NCBI RefSeq assembly: GCF_009856365.1
Contig: NZ_WMEX01000007.1
Span: forward strand, 1 to 64,000
Length of the DNA stretch: 64,000 nt
Origin: Vreelandella halophila
GTDB taxonomy: Bacteria > Pseudomonadota > Gammaproteobacteria > Pseudomonadales > Oleiphilaceae
Direction of reading: 5' to 3'
Shown here in pieces: positions 1 to 5,222 of this stretch; position 1 is the stretch's first letter; each line of letters begins with the position of its first letter. The position numbers and the translations under genes were made by a program. The notes beneath the pieces were generated by a model. The model ran no database searches and had not been told where the DNA came from. It was given only the letters and a program-made list of their open reading frames with translations.

Positions 1-97
1 GGAACCACCTGATCCCATGCCGAACTCAGAAGTGAAACCGCCCAGCGCCGATGGTAGTGTGGGAGATCCCATGTGAGAGTAGGTCATCGTCAGGCTC
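1..97 (+). rRNA. rrf: 5S ribosomal RNA, 3' portion (truncated by window edge)
   Basis: The first bases match the conserved interior of bacterial 5S rRNA (CCATGCCGAACTCAGAAGTG, then CGCCGATGGTAGTGTGGGAG) and the sequence ends in the usual GTCAGGC 3' strand of helix I. The 5' end lies outside the window, so this is the last gene of a plus-strand rrn operon. The exact 3' end (about 96-98) is inferred from the partner-strand consensus. A terminator follows directly. Confidence 0.93.
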
Positions 98-295: not shown

Positions 296-1399
296 TTGAC
301 GGACAGAACCCTGAAAACGTCCATGAGTCTGATGATGCTCTTGCTTGCCGGTGTGCCGTCAGCCTGGGCGTCCGGCATGGAGCCCATGAGCAACCGGGAA
401 ATGGCTGACGTCCGGGGGCAGGGAGTCGGGATCGTCATGGAGGACTTTCGCTTTGCACACGGTCATGATCCGGCCAACAACCAGACATTCCGGTTGAGCG
501 GCATCACCAACCAGGCCGGAGAGGATGTCGAGGTACTGGTTGATCAGCTTTACATCGGAGGTGCTGGGAGCCAGCGGGGTGAGAGCCTGCAGACGGTCAA
601 CCTCGGGCGTCTGACCAACCCCTTCGGGATTGATCTGGTTGATGGTGATGGGATCGGCGGTGATGCAGCTGGTAAGGCGGTGTTTGAATACGCGGCTCCC
701 GAGAAGGTTGCACAGGCTGAGGGCGTCGCCTGTCTGCCAGGTGGGGCGGACACCGGCTGCGTGAGTCGTGCGCCGAATGCGGATCAGAACATCCGGGGCG
801 AACGCATGGATCTTGGTTTCGAGACAACGGTGCACTCTGGTACCGCTGTGGCGAAGTCGGTGAATATCCATGCCGAGAAGGCCGTTGTGGATGGCAGTTT
901 CATCCAGCTATGGGGGGCGACGTCTGACGATAGCCGACAGCAGCTGCGCGGTCGCATCCAGACCAACTTCTACACGCCCAGCCTGACGGTCAGTGCCTGC
1001 GAGCAGGGCGGAACCAATTGCAACACCGAGATCGCCTTCAATGATTTCATGATGGAGCTCGCCCTGGGCAACGAGCATCAGCCGCTCTTCATGGGCGTTC
1101 TGGGCGTAGGCCAGGAAGTAAAAACGGATGGTAAGACCGTTGCCGGCCCCGGTAACTTCCGTCTCGAGCTGAAAGCCATCAACAACGCCCGATCGCCGGC
1201 CCCCATCAATGACGCGGGCGACGGCTCCAGCGATGATAATGCCACCTACGATTTCTACAGCGATTATTACACCAACGATGAATACCGCAGCGACATAGAA
1301 GTCGGCAGTCTGGAGGTCGGTGGCCAGGACATGGGATCAACCAGGATGAAGGGGATGCTGTTCCAGAAACTGGATGTGACCACGAGGAGCCTGGACTGA
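296..1399 (+). CDS. exported protein with N-terminal L-x-x-V-x-G-Q motif (DUF6160/FilA-like), cassette gene 1
   Basis: 367 residues. The TTG start is chosen because AGGAG lies 8 nt upstream; an ATG at 323 would also give a signal peptide. A hydrophobic leader ends near PSAWA, and right after it comes MEPMSNREMADVRGQ, the same motif found at the mature N-terminus of the next two genes. The rest is a predicted beta-rich secreted protein with no catalytic motif I recognise. The motif resembles that of DUF6160/FilA-type surface proteins of Pseudomonas and Acinetobacter; that family name is from memory and not verified. Only 1 nt separates it from the next gene, so the three are probably one operon. 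Function unknown; a surface or periplasmic structural role is a guess. Confidence 0.8.
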   Translation: MTDRTLKTSMSLMMLLLAGVPSAWASGMEPMSNREMADVRGQGVGIVMEDFRFAHGHDPANNQTFRLSGITNQAGEDVEVLVDQLYIGGAGSQRGESLQTVNLGRLTNPFGIDLVDGDGIGGDAAGKAVFEYAAPEKVAQAEGVACLPGGADTGCVSRAPNADQNIRGERMDLGFETTVHSGTAVAKSVNIHAEKAVVDGSFIQLWGATSDDSRQQLRGRIQTNFYTPSLTVSACEQGGTNCNTEIAFNDFMMELALGNEHQPLFMGVLGVGQEVKTDGKTVAGPGNFRLELKAINNARSPAPINDAGDGSSDDNATYDFYSDYYTNDEYRSDIEVGSLEVGGQDMGSTRMKGMLFQKLDVTTRSLD

Positions 1400-1400
1400 T

Positions 1401-1970
1401 ATGGCGATTCAGGGAAATAGCATACGCAGGTTCATGGTCACAGCTGTCGTTGCCCTCGGTTGTGCTTCAAACGCTGTGGCCGAGATGGAATCGATGAGTG
1501 ACCAGGACCTCTCGGGAGTCAGTGGGCAGTATGGGGGCATGTCGCTCTCTGGCGATGTGACGTTCAATGAGTCCGGTGGTCCCCTTAAGGGGGAGGCTGT
1601 CGGGTTTGACTGCGGCGAGGGCGAGCGTTGTGGTGCCCGGATTGCCGCCCAGCTGAATCAGGGCGGTGGCTGGATTGTACTGGACGATCTGCAGGGAACC
1701 TTCGAGTTCATGGGGCTGACGCTGGCCACTCGGCTGATCAATGGGGACGATACGGGATTCGGGGGCGATGCAGGGGACTTCAACCGGGAAGTCATTGAGA
1801 TCGGCCTGCCGGAGACAGCCCGTTTTACGGATTTCAGCTACACCATGGCAACCAGTTCAACGGCCCGCCCCGGCGATAGTGATTTCCGTCAGGTTGATCG
1901 CCTGACAGTGGAAATGGGGGGCGACATGACCCTGGACGGTAATGCATTGATCTTCCCTACGGAGCCCTGA
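1401..1970 (+). CDS. small exported protein with the same L-x-x-V-x-G-Q motif, cassette gene 2
   Basis: 189 residues starting at ATG 1401, one base after the stop of the previous gene. A signal peptide of about 27 residues ends in SNAVA, followed by EMESMSDQDLSGVSGQ, clearly homologous to the mature N-termini of its two neighbours. The remainder is rich in Gly and Asp with alternating hydrophobic residues, as in beta-sheet secreted proteins; two Cys (in DCGEGERCG) could form a disulphide. No enzyme motif is visible. It is the shortest member of the tandem family and may be a minor subunit or a truncated paralogue. Confidence 0.78.
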   Translation: MAIQGNSIRRFMVTAVVALGCASNAVAEMESMSDQDLSGVSGQYGGMSLSGDVTFNESGGPLKGEAVGFDCGEGERCGARIAAQLNQGGGWIVLDDLQGTFEFMGLTLATRLINGDDTGFGGDAGDFNREVIEIGLPETARFTDFSYTMATSSTARPGDSDFRQVDRLTVEMGGDMTLDGNALIFPTEP

Positions 1971-1973
1971 GCC

Positions 1974-4190
1974 ATGAAGAAACAGGTACTCCATCGCTGG
2001 TTTTCTGCAGCAGGGATGGCGCTCTACGCGGCAACGGGCCAGGTGTGTGCCATGGAAGCCATGAACGATGCGGAACTGGCCGGTGTCCAGGGGCAGGCGG
2101 GCGTTACCGTCGAAATGGCCCACAAGGCCTCCATGGATCGTTTCAGCTATTTCACCAATGACAACGGGATACATCTGGAGGACATTCGGGTCGGGTCTGC
2201 CTCCGATCCTGAAGGTCGGGCGAGAAGGGACTATGAACTCGATCTGCTGAACGATGGCAGCCTTGAGATCGGGCTGGATATACAGGATGAGCGTGTGTCT
2301 GTGGGTGGTGTCTCGCTGGATGACAGTGGCGCCCGGAGCATGGGGGCCTTCTGGATGGATCGTGATATGGATGGCTTCTTTCGCATTACTCCTGGTGGTG
2401 CGGGTGGCTCTGCTGATGGATACACCTTCAATTTCGATTACGCGTTGAGTAATGGCCGTTTCGGCTATCGCACGAATGGTCATCAGTTGTTTCTCGATGA
2501 TGTATCCATGAATATCTCAACACCGGAAGGGGCCGGTCATACGCTTGATGTGATCGATGGAGCCATCCAGTACGTGGCGCCGACGGTTGGGGATATCACC
2601 ATAGGAGCAGTCCGTTACGCTGAACAGTCGACCAACATTCGAGGCGATCAGAGCGCGCTCGCCAGCATGGGGTCTTTTGAAGCCGATTTCGATTTTATTA
2701 CGGATTTCGAGATTCGTGGTGGTGGCGGTCGCCAGGGGGCCGAAGGGATACAGGTTAGCGCAGATACTACGCTCAATACCGCAAGCTTTCTTTACAGCAC
2801 CAACGGTTATGGGCTGCTTTATCAGGGAATATCCGGGGCCTCCAGTGTCCAGGACCTTCGTATCGAAGTAGGGGAGGATTTCACGGAGGAGGGCCGTCAG
2901 GGACTGGCCTTTACCCTGAACGGGGCCAGCTCCAGGGCGGAAGGCAATCTCAGCATTGATGACATCCGGCTGGGTGTTGATGCCGGAACCCGGGATGGCG
3001 GACGCAGCGTCGGTTCCGTGAACTTCAGCTGGCTTTACGAGAACCAGACCATCAATGGGGCAACTTTCGCTAATCAGGTCTACCTGATGGCCGGAGGTCA
3101 CCCGGATGCGGGCGACGAAGGGATGCGCTTCGCCTCTGAATGGAGCCTTGCGGATGCGGGGCTGACCTGGACGACCAACGGCAATTCTGTGCTTTTTGAC
3201 GGGATACAGTCCTGGGGGCGCGGTGATGTGACTGTCAACGTCACGGGCAATGAGGCACTGGGGGGCACGCAGTTCTACAAAGGGCTTCGGGTTGGTTTTG
3301 ATGGCATTTCCGGCGGCTACCGCATGGATGGGATTCGTGTCGGCTCCGAGGGCTCGGCAGAGGGAGCCGAGGTTCAGGCGGGAGCTGAGCTTCTGAGTGC
3401 CCTCGGGGTTTTCCGTTCCTTTGAATTCGGCAATATGGACGGGCAGTACACGCTGACTCCGGGCGGTCCGAATGGCGACGGGATCACCATCAACTCGGAC
3501 CTCTATATCGAGGATGGCCGTATCGGGTCCCTGACCGAGGCGTCTGGCCAGGGCGTCTGGGCGGACGACCTGTCTTACGAGGGGCACATCCGGGATATGA
3601 CGCTGGAAGTCGTTCAGAATGGTCTTCGTGTCGTGCAGGGAGAGGCATGGAGCACCATGGATGTGGGCAATCTGCGGGTAGGCGGCGCGGAAGATGGCGC
3701 CAGTTTCGGCCGCATCGTCTGGCAGCGCTACGGTCAGGACAGTGAGATGGTGATTACGGGGCCGGAAGGGCAGGAAGGGCTCAAACTGGCCCTTACGAGC
3801 ATCTTCAGTGAGGCGGTGGGCGATAAGCGTAACCGCTTCCTGTGGGAGACTGGCCGGACCACGGATGCGGAGGGCAACCCCCAGAATGGAACCGGGATGC
3901 AGTTGGTGCTCGACAACATACACACGTCCGATGGACTGGGTGCCGGCAACAATGATTTCGGGGTCCAGACGGAGTTGACGGTCGACGTCCGTGAAGCGGA
4001 TTCCGCTGATGGACTGCAACCAAGCTTCCATGTGAATACCCACACACGGTTCAGGGAGCTCAATGTCGGCCGTGTCAATCTTGTCCACAATGATGGCAGC
4101 GGCAACAGTTCCACGGCGACGGCGCTGCAGGGCGTCAGCATCCAGAACATGGATATGGAATCGAACCTGAACGCCACACCCATTCCCTGA
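1974..4190 (+). CDS. large exported repeat protein with L-x-x-V-x-G-Q motif, cassette gene 3
   Basis: 738 residues. Signal peptide 1-26 (ends QVCA), then MEAMNDAELAGVQGQAG. The mature protein contains about five imperfect repeats of 106-125 residues. Each opens with a Y/W-x-TN-G/D ... L-x-D/G-I/V box (residues 59, 165, 274, 399, and a degenerate one near 519) and carries a Gly-rich box (TPGG-like, near 139, 247, 371, 494, 593) later in the unit. Such repeats suggest an elongated beta-rich surface or periplasmic protein. It follows gene 2 by 3 nt. No adhesin, enzyme or transport domain was recognised. Antisense reading frames across it are codon-bias shadows. Confidence 0.8.
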   Translation: MKKQVLHRWFSAAGMALYAATGQVCAMEAMNDAELAGVQGQAGVTVEMAHKASMDRFSYFTNDNGIHLEDIRVGSASDPEGRARRDYELDLLNDGSLEIGLDIQDERVSVGGVSLDDSGARSMGAFWMDRDMDGFFRITPGGAGGSADGYTFNFDYALSNGRFGYRTNGHQLFLDDVSMNISTPEGAGHTLDVIDGAIQYVAPTVGDITIGAVRYAEQSTNIRGDQSALASMGSFEADFDFITDFEIRGGGGRQGAEGIQVSADTTLNTASFLYSTNGYGLLYQGISGASSVQDLRIEVGEDFTEEGRQGLAFTLNGASSRAEGNLSIDDIRLGVDAGTRDGGRSVGSVNFSWLYENQTINGATFANQVYLMAGGHPDAGDEGMRFASEWSLADAGLTWTTNGNSVLFDGIQSWGRGDVTVNVTGNEALGGTQFYKGLRVGFDGISGGYRMDGIRVGSEGSAEGAEVQAGAELLSALGVFRSFEFGNMDGQYTLTPGGPNGDGITINSDLYIEDGRIGSLTEASGQGVWADDLSYEGHIRDMTLEVVQNGLRVVQGEAWSTMDVGNLRVGGAEDGASFGRIVWQRYGQDSEMVITGPEGQEGLKLALTSIFSEAVGDKRNRFLWETGRTTDAEGNPQNGTGMQLVLDNIHTSDGLGAGNNDFGVQTELTVDVREADSADGLQPSFHVNTHTRFRELNVGRVNLVHNDGSGNSSTATALQGVSIQNMDMESNLNATPIP

Positions 4191-4247: not shown

Positions 4248-5222
4248 ATGCATCCCTATCCTCTGATCCACCTGCTGGCCGATGGCCAGCTCCATTCCGG
4301 TACTGAACTTGCGGGGCGGCTGGGTGTGAGCCGGACCGCTGTCTGGAAACAGCTGCGCGGGCTTGAGGAAATCGGTCTGGACGTTGAGTCCGTCCGCGGC
4401 AAGGGCTATCGGCTGGCTGAACCGCTGGATCTGCTGTCCCGGGAGTCGATCGAGCCGGCTCTGGCGGGTCTGAAGCCTCAGCCCGAACTGGCGCTGGAGC
4501 CAGTCGTTGAATCAACGAACACCCTCCTCATGGGTCATTCCGGTTATTCAGGGGTTCCCCGCGTGTGTCTCGCCGAGCAGCAGTTAAAGGGGCGCGGTCG
4601 CCGGGGGCGGGGGTGGGTCAGTCCCTTCGCCCGCAACCTCTATCTCAGCGTCGGTGTGGAAACCGATGCCGGGCCCGCAGCGGTCCAGGGCGTAACGCTA
4701 AGGGCGGGCCTCGGGGCGGTCCGGGCCCTGGCGGGGCTTGGTATAGAGGGACTGGGGATCAAGTGGCCCAATGATCTTTGGCTCAATGGCCGCAAGGTGG
4801 CGGGCATTCTGACGGAGCTTCAGGGATCGGCCCAGGATGAACTCAGACTCGTGATCGGGCTGGGCCTGAATGTCTATATGACGGAATCGGAAACCGCGAT
4901 TGACCAGCCCTGGACATCCCTGGCCAAAGAGGGGCAGGTGCCAGAGGGGGGGCGCAACCGTTTGGCTGTTGCATTGATTGAGGGAATCCTGGCCTCGGTG
5001 GTCGATCTCGGGTTCGGGCCGGATCCGGCCGTTCCCGCGGAGTGGGCACACTATGATGTGTTACGGGGCCGGCAGGTGGCCGTCAGGGGCAGGGATTGTC
5101 GAGGCATCGGTGATGGCATTGATGCGTCCGGGCAACTTCGGCTGCGGACGGCGGATGGCGAAGTGATACTCCTGAATGCCGGAGAGGTGAGTCTGGAGGT
5201 CCCGATTGATTCTGCAGGTTGA
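4248..5222 (+). CDS. birA: bifunctional biotin--[acetyl-CoA-carboxylase] ligase / biotin operon repressor
   Basis: 324 residues, ATG start with AAGGAG 5 nt upstream. An N-terminal winged HTH (about residues 8-55, with GVSRTAVWKQLRGLEE) precedes the catalytic domain, with the biotinyl-AMP loop GRGRRGRGW (115-123) and the KWPNDLWLNGRKVAG block (172-186) whose second Lys is the conserved catalytic lysine. The C-terminal SH3-like domain ends near 320. It activates biotin with ATP, transfers it to the carboxyl carrier protein of acetyl-CoA carboxylase, and as a holo-repressor can bind bio operators. Its end overlaps the coaX start, a common gammaproteobacterial pairing. Confidence 0.96.
   Translation: MHPYPLIHLLADGQLHSGTELAGRLGVSRTAVWKQLRGLEEIGLDVESVRGKGYRLAEPLDLLSRESIEPALAGLKPQPELALEPVVESTNTLLMGHSGYSGVPRVCLAEQQLKGRGRRGRGWVSPFARNLYLSVGVETDAGPAAVQGVTLRAGLGAVRALAGLGIEGLGIKWPNDLWLNGRKVAGILTELQGSAQDELRLVIGLGLNVYMTESETAIDQPWTSLAKEGQVPEGGRNRLAVALIEGILASVVDLGFGPDPAVPAEWAHYDVLRGRQVAVRGRDCRGIGDGIDASGQLRLRTADGEVILLNAGEVSLEVPIDSAG

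What the first reader, a model, noticed from the sequence alone, without database searches (positions are those of the whole stretch)
296..4190. Three-gene operon of related exported proteins of unknown function between rrn and birA
All three have a signal peptide followed at once by the same M-E-x-M-S/N-(x)3-L/M-x-x-V-x-G-Q motif and lie 1-3 nt apart, so they look like one duplicated and diverged family made together. In the related Pseudomonas layout birA follows the rrn operon directly, so this cassette appears to be an insertion at that junction. The sharing of a mature N-terminal motif suggests co-assembly or recognition by a common export or anchoring step. This is the best candidate in the window for an undescribed system.
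Basis: partly seen in the sequence, partly recalled or inferred. Interest (0 to 1): 0.6.

Follow-up and report, generated by a model that had tools for sequence, protein, structure and literature searches.

The report
Secreted proteins with shared two-step leader
Three neighbouring bacterial genes make secreted proteins that share little except a short tag just behind the normal export signal; the tag has the pattern read by bacteriocin-type proteases, and a periplasmic protease of that type occurs in almost the same genomes as such tagged proteins, which gives a clear, testable guess at a processing step that is still unclear in a related biofilm-fibre secretion system.

Summary
The three ORFs and their shared motif are real. 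Detectable similarity is confined to the signal peptide and the 16 residues behind it; the mature parts show none. The motif is thus a shared leader rather than proof of a duplicated family. It has hydrophobic residues at exactly -15, -12, -7 and -4 and Gly at -2 (GQ in the window; GA in most p1 orthologs), the pattern read by C39 'double-glycine' peptidases. p3 belongs to Pfam DUF6160; p1 and p2 fall below its cut-off. Elsewhere the host genome has a FilB-like C39 peptidase, a FilC-like (FapF-related) outer-membrane protein and a FadL-type FilD-like protein. In 244 genomes of the order, DUF6160 and FilB-like genes co-occur (both 31, one alone 3, neither 210). FapE, the suspected target of FapD, has a similar but looser leader. 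The cassette is not a recent insertion: p3 sits beside birA in 17 of 20 relatives examined, and a fourth leader-bearing gene is common in Marinobacter and allies. Best reading: Sec-exported substrates with a second, periplasmic C39 processing step. Recognition, cleavage, outer-membrane export and final role are inferred. A new variant of a known kind.

The parts
1..95 (+). 5S rRNA, 3' part (the contig begins inside it)
   Evidence: Rfam RF00001, 67.8 bits
105..143 (+). probable rrn terminator (GC-rich hairpin then T run)
296..1399 (+). p1, 367 aa exported protein, TTG start
   Evidence: ORF; orthologs beside p2, p3 and birA; DUF6160 E 0.032, below cut-off
374..421 (+). p1 pro-leader, residues -16 to -1, GMEPMSNREMADVRGQ
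   Evidence: column pattern in 37 aligned p1 proteins; most orthologs end in GA
1401..1970 (+). p2, 189 aa exported protein
   Evidence: ORF; DUF6160 24.0 bits, just below cut-off 27; orthologs
1482..1529 (+). p2 pro-leader, EMESMSDQDLSGVSGQ
   Evidence: leader table of p2 orthologs
1974..4190 (+). p3, 738 aa exported, all-beta protein with DUF6160 N-terminus
   Evidence: DUF6160 47.5 bits over cut-off 27; AlphaFold2 mean pLDDT 86
2049..2096 (+). p3 pro-leader, AMEAMNDAELAGVQGQ
   Evidence: column pattern in 36 aligned p3 proteins; first strand of the model begins at residue 43, just after GQ 40-41
4248..5222 (+). birA, flanking gene, not part of the system

Best explanation
p1, p2 and p3 are client proteins of a Fil/Fap-like export system whose machinery is encoded elsewhere in the genome. 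Step 1 (inferred from sequence): Sec export and signal-peptidase cleavage leave a 16-residue pro-leader at the N-terminus. Step 2 (pattern and co-occurrence shown; recognition and cutting inferred): a periplasmic, probably membrane-anchored C39 peptidase (FilB-like) binds this leader through hydrophobic residues at -15, -12, -7 and -4 and cuts after the Gly-Gln (or Gly-Ala) pair. Step 3 (inferred by analogy with Fap): the mature beta-rich proteins cross or join the outer membrane with the help of FilC (FapF-related) and FilD (FadL-type) and become cell-surface or matrix components. The three proteins need not be related beyond the leader. Rough odds: leader recognised by FilB 0.8; cleavage at or next to GQ 0.65; export through FilC 0.45.
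For: Leader: hydrophobic at -15, -12, -7, -4 in 36/36 p3 and 37/37 p1 proteins and in at most 1 sequence at the positions between (except -8 in p3, 7/36), in alignments of orthologs picked by their mature parts (window plus 35 of 64 and 36 of 61 full-length named orthologs). A review gives Phe(-15), Ile(-12), Leu(-7), Ile(-4) for the C39 peptidase ComA and GG, GA or GS as end (PMC10885120, passages). Of 28 leader pieces scanned against NCBIfam, the 7 families hit besides FilA are all bacteriocin or lantibiotic families (E 0.003-0.043); 56 shuffled pieces hit two families, none of that kind. Machinery in the same genome: FilB NF050078 E 1e-79, FilC NF050079 E 1e-96, FilD NF050080 E 2e-123; FilB aligns to PCAT1 peptidase structures (E 4.9e-7); each of 25 FilB loci, 20 distinct genes, gave an ORF with the Cys motif, with the Asp motif in all 20 and the His motif in 19. 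FilC matches FapF structures (E 1.4e-10). DUF6160 versus FilB-like: 97 relatives both 59, DUF6160 only 4, FilB only 1, neither 33; 244 genomes of the order, overlapping sample, 31, 2, 1, 210, both in 8 families. In at least 18 of the 31 a DUF6160 gene lies 229-2462 bp from FilB. FapE proteins have a similar leader.
Against: No cleavage is shown. The window's P1 residue is Gln, outside the GG/GA/GS set. Related genomes share both genes by descent, so p values overstate the case. G031 (97% complete) has 6 DUF6160 hits and no FilB hit; G117 (89% complete) has FilB and no DUF6160. FilB-, FilC- and FilD-like proteins score below NCBIfam's curated cut-offs. In this genome substrates and machinery are unlinked. 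The FapE leaders fit less well: of 8 seen, -12, -7 and Gly -2 fit in 8, -4 in 5, -15 in 1, and in two further fap-like loci (L128, L139) no leader-bearing gene was seen. Predicted p3 and p1 are folded beta proteins, unlike unfolded Fap subunits, so passage through a FapF-like pore is uncertain. Pfam hits of the leader pieces include two families that are not bacteriocins.
Confidence: 0.72

Rival explanations
1. The leader is a docking tag, not a cleavage site: FilB binds it as a chaperone or gate and does not cut, as catalytically dead C39-like domains do in some type I secretion systems.
For: P1 is Gln in the window and in nearly all p0, p2 and p3 orthologs with a motif, unlike GG/GA/GS. PMC5557850 mentions C39-like domains without activity (passage).
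Against: The Cys, Asp and (19 of 20) His motifs are kept in distinct FilB genes. FapD C38A abolishes FapC secretion (PMC5557850, passages). p1 orthologs mostly end in GA (47 of 60 with a motif), a standard C39 end.
Confidence: 0.17
2. The three proteins are a duplicated and diverged family that co-assembles; the motif is a remnant of common descent.
For: Operon layout with 1-3 nt gaps; shared signal peptide and leader; p1 and p3 are both beta-rich in AlphaFold2 (p2 not modelled).
Against: Mature-region profiles show no similarity (HHalign probability 0.2-4.1%, six pairs); whole-protein profiles of p3 and p1 align around the leader, with the short stretch after it weakly matched.
Confidence: 0.15
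3. p3, or all of them, are outer-membrane beta-barrels or lipid-binding beta-sheets that act at the outer membrane with the FadL-like protein; the leader only delays folding.
For: Long strands in the p3 model; best VIA-align match apolipoprotein B (Z 11.1, rmsd 13.2, 341 aligned), then many outer-membrane barrels; FilD is FadL-type.
Against: No Foldseek match at E <= 0.001; matches of this size may be only a common arrangement; strand alternation is weakly above shuffles (z 1.9 for p3, 0.5 for p1); the mature proteins are acidic and Gly-rich.
Confidence: 0.15

Closest known systems
DUF6160 (Pfam PF19657)
   Same: p3 is a member above cut-off; the model covers signal peptide, leader and the start of the mature part
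   Different: p2 (24.0 bits) and p1 (14.9 bits) are below the 27-bit cut-off; the family has no stated function
Fil 'putative pilus system' (FilA-FilF, NCBIfam; described from Acinetobacter)
   Same: FilB-, FilC- and FilD-like genes in one run in the same genome; in G094 DUF6160/FilA-like genes lie beside a FilB-like gene and near a FilF-like gene (the two genes between them were not scanned)
   Different: scores below NCBIfam cut-offs; the window genes lie beside rrn, unlinked from the machinery; they match FilA only in the N-terminus
Fap functional-amyloid secretion (FapA-FapF) of Pseudomonas
   Same: periplasmic C39 peptidase, FapF-type outer-membrane protein, and an exported protein (FapE) with a similar leader
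   Different: the host's FilB- and FilC-like proteins are below the FapD and FapF cut-offs; p1-p3 were not matched to FapB/FapC by NCBIfam; FapE leaders end in GR, GK or GG and mostly lack the -15 hydrophobic residue
Double-glycine leaders cut by C39 peptidases of ABC transporters (ComA/ComC, LahT, PCAT1)
   Same: hydrophobic positions -15, -12, -7, -4 and Gly -2; one type of leader on many different mature parts
   Different: here the leader follows a Sec signal peptide, the peptidase gene has no ABC part, and P1 is mostly Gln or Ala

Membership tests
DUF6160 (PF19657), p3 | score over Pfam cut-off of 27 bits | tested here: met
   47.5 bits
DUF6160 (PF19657), p1 and p2 | score over Pfam cut-off of 27 bits | tested here: not met
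   p2 24.0 bits, p1 14.9 bits; filed as leader-sharing proteins, not members
FilA (NF050077) | score over NCBIfam cut-off of 220 bits | tested here: not met
   p3 19.0, p2 13.8, p1 no hit
Fil machinery (NF050078, NF050079, NF050080) | scores over NCBIfam cut-offs 475, 630, 970 | tested here: not met
   267.8, 324.3, 412.5 bits over most of each model; therefore called FilB-, FilC-, FilD-like
Fap system | FapD and FapF scores over cut-offs 330 and 700 | tested here: not met
   121.7 and 50.8 bits for the host's C39 and FilC-like proteins
Double-glycine (C39) leader | hydrophobic residues at -15, -12, -7 and -4 | tested here: met
   36/36 p3 and 37/37 p1 proteins; in the window M, M, M or L, V
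Double-glycine (C39) leader | GG, GA or GS at -2/-1 | tested here: not met
   GQ in all three window proteins; GA in 47 and GG in 1 of 60 p1 orthologs with a motif
Double-glycine (C39) leader | cleavage after the motif by a C39 peptidase | not testable with these tools
   needs N-terminal sequencing or an in vitro assay

The most novel reading that the evidence does not exclude
A general two-step export route in Pseudomonadales: a Sec signal peptide followed by a 16-residue C39-type leader marks many, otherwise unrelated, proteins (up to 20 DUF6160 hits in one genome) for a single periplasmic FilB-like peptidase and a FapF-like outer-membrane protein. Fap amyloid secretion, with FapE as the leader-bearing protein, would be one specialised branch. 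(Odds lowered from 0.50 in my draft because a recount showed that FapE leaders fit at -15 in only 1 of 8 and at -4 in 5 of 8.)
Probability: 0.45. Interest if true: 0.78.

Novelty: new variant of a known kind. Interest (0 to 1): 0.6.

Why it matters
C39 'double-glycine' peptidases are known mainly as parts of bacteriocin ABC exporters. The target of their periplasmic relatives has been unclear: a 2017 paper calls the FapD target unclear, a 2018 review undetermined, and a 2025 review says FapD is thought to process the FapE N-terminus and a part of FapF (passages). The leader gives an exact site to test in DUF6160/FilA-type proteins and in FapE, and a first functional idea for a family annotated as unknown. 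In Acinetobacter baumannii, FilF is over-expressed in pellicles and has been tried as a vaccine antigen (passages), so the system is of medical interest too.

Tried and rejected
Insertion at rrn-birA: rejected as stated (17 of 20 relatives keep p3 there). In 19 loci from other families the leader-bearing clusters showed no birA match by tblastn and a 5S match in 2. Own-genome search with p3 found itself and one weak N-terminal match (E 0.0044). PDB sequence search with p3: nothing at E <= 1. Foldseek with p1 and p3: nothing at E <= 0.001; the VIA list gives only common beta arrangements. The promoter scan found no sigma-70-like site. Strand amphipathicity was not informative.

Limits of my own steps. 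The first look at FapE filtered on the wrong strand; done again. The word-pattern leader finder requires hydrophobic -12 and -7, so its residue table is partly circular; the alignment columns are the independent test. It placed no motif in 5 of 61 p0, 6 of 66 p1, 2 of 58 p2 and 10 of 73 p3 ORFs, several of them because P1 was Thr or Glu, -11 was Ala, or the ORF was cut short; it misplaced one p1 (G033). These rows were dropped from its counts. The bit-score limit for 'FilB-like' (160 or more; next lower hits about 131) was set after seeing the gap. Nine genomes had lower C39-core hits (88-126 bits) without a FilB-like hit, and none of them has DUF6160; four of the nine have a FapE hit next to the C39 gene (G159, G202, G263, G274), the other five I did not identify, and that of G201 is a fragment in a 65% complete genome and may be a cut FilB. 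In FilB ORFs the Cys motif was also the selection rule, so only the His and Asp counts and the fact that each locus gave such an ORF are a test; five of the 25 loci repeat a gene. The host genome has a second C39-domain match that was not listed and not examined. Pfam hits of the leader pieces: besides DUF6160, three bacteriocin-type families but also Fn_bind and DUF1127; no shuffled control was run on Pfam. That the seven NCBIfam families have double-glycine leaders rests on their names and recall. Match lists were capped.
Full report
OBSERVATION. The window begins inside a 5S rRNA (1-95). Three + strand ORFs follow at 296-1399, 1401-1970 and 1974-4190, then birA at 4248. I call the proteins p1 (367 aa), p2 (189 aa) and p3 (738 aa).

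FAMILY. Against Pfam, p3 matches DUF6160 above the curated cut-off (47.5 versus 27 bits); p2 (24.0) and p1 (14.9) match the same model below it. NCBIfam gives weak N-terminal matches of p2 and p3 to FilA, 'putative pilus system protein'. DUF6160 occurs in 63 of 97 relatives, with up to 20 hits in one genome. One paper in the library names DUF6160, in a list (PMC11687729, passage).

ONLY THE LEADER IS SHARED. BLASTP between p2 and p3 is significant over signal peptide plus leader (38 aa, E 1e-5 in a database of the three proteins); the best other matches have E 0.06 or more. Whole-protein profiles of p3 and p1 align around the signal peptide and leader (E 2e-7); the mature regions of the p0, p1, p2 and p3 ortholog groups show no similarity in any of the six pairs (HHalign probability 0.2-4.1%). 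So a common tag sits on proteins that are unrelated or too diverged to tell.

WHAT THE TAG LOOKS LIKE. In alignments of 36 p3 and 37 p1 proteins (window plus 35 of 64 and 36 of 61 full-length named orthologs, picked by mature-region similarity), the residues at -15, -12, -7 and -4 are hydrophobic in every sequence; positions -16 to -1 between them are hydrophobic in at most one sequence, except -8 in p3 (7 of 36); -2 is Gly in 34 of 36 and 37 of 37. Position -17 is mostly Ala (27 of 36, 28 of 37), which fits signal-peptidase cleavage and would leave a 16-residue pro-leader (inference). A review gives Phe(-15), Ile(-12), Leu(-7), Ile(-4) as the recognition pattern of the C39 peptidase ComA, hydrophobic pockets for -4, -7 and -12 in LahT, and GG, GA or GS as the end (PMC10885120, passages). 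It also tells of one C39 enzyme that serves up to nine precursors with conserved leaders and diverse cores, which is the pattern seen here. In the 73 named loci, p1 orthologs end in GA in 47 of the 60 in which the finder placed a motif (66 p1 ORFs in all); p0, p2 and p3 end in GQ in 55 of 56 (61 ORFs), 52 of 56 (58) and 61 of 63 (73). Twenty-eight 24-residue leader pieces scanned against the 18,950 NCBIfam models hit FilA and seven other families, all bacteriocins or lantibiotics (single E-values 0.003-0.043); 56 shuffled pieces hit two families, neither of that kind. Against Pfam they hit DUF6160, three bacteriocin-type families and two others.

MACHINERY IN THE SAME GENOME. The assembly (3.34 Mb, 19 contigs) has one FilB-like hit, followed in the same direction by a FilC-like and a FilD-like gene (L063): NCBIfam FilB E 1e-79, FilC E 1e-96, FilD E 2e-123, all below the curated cut-offs; the first two also match FapD (E 2.6e-35) and FapF (E 1.1e-13). 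The FilB-like protein has a C39 domain and no ABC domain in Pfam, and its N-terminus is a hydrophobic stretch (by eye). It aligns to PCAT1 peptidase structures. Each of 25 FilB loci (20 distinct genes) gave an ORF with the Cys motif; the Asp motif was found in all 20 and the His motif in 19. The FilC-like protein matches FapF crystal structures (E 1.4e-10).

CO-OCCURRENCE. In 97 relatives: both DUF6160 and FilB-like 59, DUF6160 only 4 (G020, G026 and G062, 74-85% complete; G031, 97%), FilB only 1 (G002, 68% complete), neither 33. In 244 genomes drawn from the order, a sample that overlaps the first: both 31, DUF6160 only 2 (G062; G116 with a hit below cut-off), FilB only 1 (G117, 89% complete), neither 210; both occur in 8 families. 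Nine genomes with a lower C39-core hit and no FilB-like hit have no DUF6160; four of these have a FapE hit next to the C39 gene (G159, G202, G263, G274), so a Fap-type C39 without FilB does not go with DUF6160 in those four. In the host's family, G015 and G039 lack both FilB-like genes and DUF6160. In at least 18 of the 31 genomes with both, a DUF6160 gene lies 229-2462 bp from FilB. Shared ancestry inflates any p value, and I do not lean on one.

LINK TO FAP. In L127 a FapD-type C39 gene (E 7e-46) and a FapF-like gene (E 4e-42) lie beside an exported protein with LTDVELAAQRGG behind its signal peptide; L126 has one with LTDQELSELRGG; both N-termini match the FapE model weakly (E 0.01 and 0.007). 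FapE from three genomes of family f20 has, right after the signal peptide, L-K-D-x-E-(L/M)-A-x-L-R-G-(R/K); FapE relatives in two other families have LSDSEL(A/G)QQRGR (two copies) and VPEEQLSEIRGK. The fit is looser than in DUF6160 proteins: of these 8, positions -12 and -7 and Gly -2 fit in 8, -4 in 5 and -15 in 1. In two more fap-like loci (L128, L139) no leader-bearing gene was seen. The FapF paper states that the FapD target is unclear, that C38A abolishes FapC secretion and that no peptide of the mature FapE N-terminus was observed (PMC5557850, passages); later reviews call the substrate undetermined (PMC6173800, passages) or say that FapD is thought to process the FapE N-terminus and the periplasmic region of FapF (PMC12822426, passage). 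The leader gives that idea a precise site.

LOCUS HISTORY. Of 20 birA loci fetched (from 46 birA-positive genomes among 58), 17 have p3 next to birA and 16 have p1, p2 and p3 (the other, G002, is on a short contig); G014, G034 and G015 have birA directly after a 5S match. Among 73 named loci found by p3 similarity (Halovibrio, Halospina, 'Vreelandella utahensis' DSM 3051, Marinobacter, Oleiphilus and others), p1 is found in 72, birA in 71, p2 in 70, p0 in 62 and 5S in 50 (many contigs begin or end near the rrn). p0, about 400 aa with the same leader, precedes p1 in 7 of the 20 loci, from 5 genera; it is not there in the g4 genome and the g10 genome looked at. In the host and three congeners p0 instead follows another 5S copy near a contig end (in the host 144 bp, 99.3% identical to the window's; four of four genomes tested), so the cluster seems to have been split between two rrn operons. 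In 19 loci from other families, tblastn finds all of p0-p3 in 7 and p1-p3 in an eighth, without birA; two of the 19 have a 5S match upstream.

STRUCTURE. AlphaFold2 gives p3 a confident all-beta fold (mean pLDDT 86, five models 82-86) whose first strand begins at residue 43, just after GQ at 40-41; p1 is less certain (79, five models 57-79). Neither has a Foldseek match in the PDB at E <= 0.001.

CONCLUSION. Shown: the shared leader, its C39-type pattern, a FilB-like C39 gene in the same genome and close co-occurrence across the order, and a conserved locus. Inferred: recognition and cutting by FilB, export with FilC/FilD, surface or matrix role. Not found in print in the searches (listings, and passages of ten papers): a description of a C39-type leader behind a Sec signal in DUF6160/FilA proteins. 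The library lacks most subscription papers, so this does not prove novelty.

Noticed in passing
L066:7222-8103 (own genome, contig C14 end): The fourth gene p0 of the cluster follows a second, nearly identical 5S copy, so the cluster is split between two rrn operons in this genus.
   Followed up: partly
L126, L127, L128: FapD-type C39 loci beside proteins rich in NSDNSDNS repeats, perhaps amyloid or matrix subunits.
   Followed up: partly
L139 (G015:C10): A fap-like locus that looks decayed by eye (short FapF-like ORF; C39 hit with an internal stop), in a genome without DUF6160, FilB or the rrn-birA cassette.
   Followed up: partly
L206, L208, L213, L214: Only partial p0-p3 matches beside birA; possible decaying copies of the cassette in some Marinobacter.
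   Followed up: no
L119:1824-4631: Two extra tandem p0-like genes upstream of p0 in G023, so the number of leader-bearing genes at this locus varies.
   Followed up: no
L064:1685-4620: A DUF6160 gene follows a 644 aa exported protein with choice-of-anchor D and Ig-like domains.
   Followed up: no
L283, L292: In another family the cluster lies between a 5S match and a gene that looks like leuA (name recalled from its sequence, not tested).
   Followed up: no
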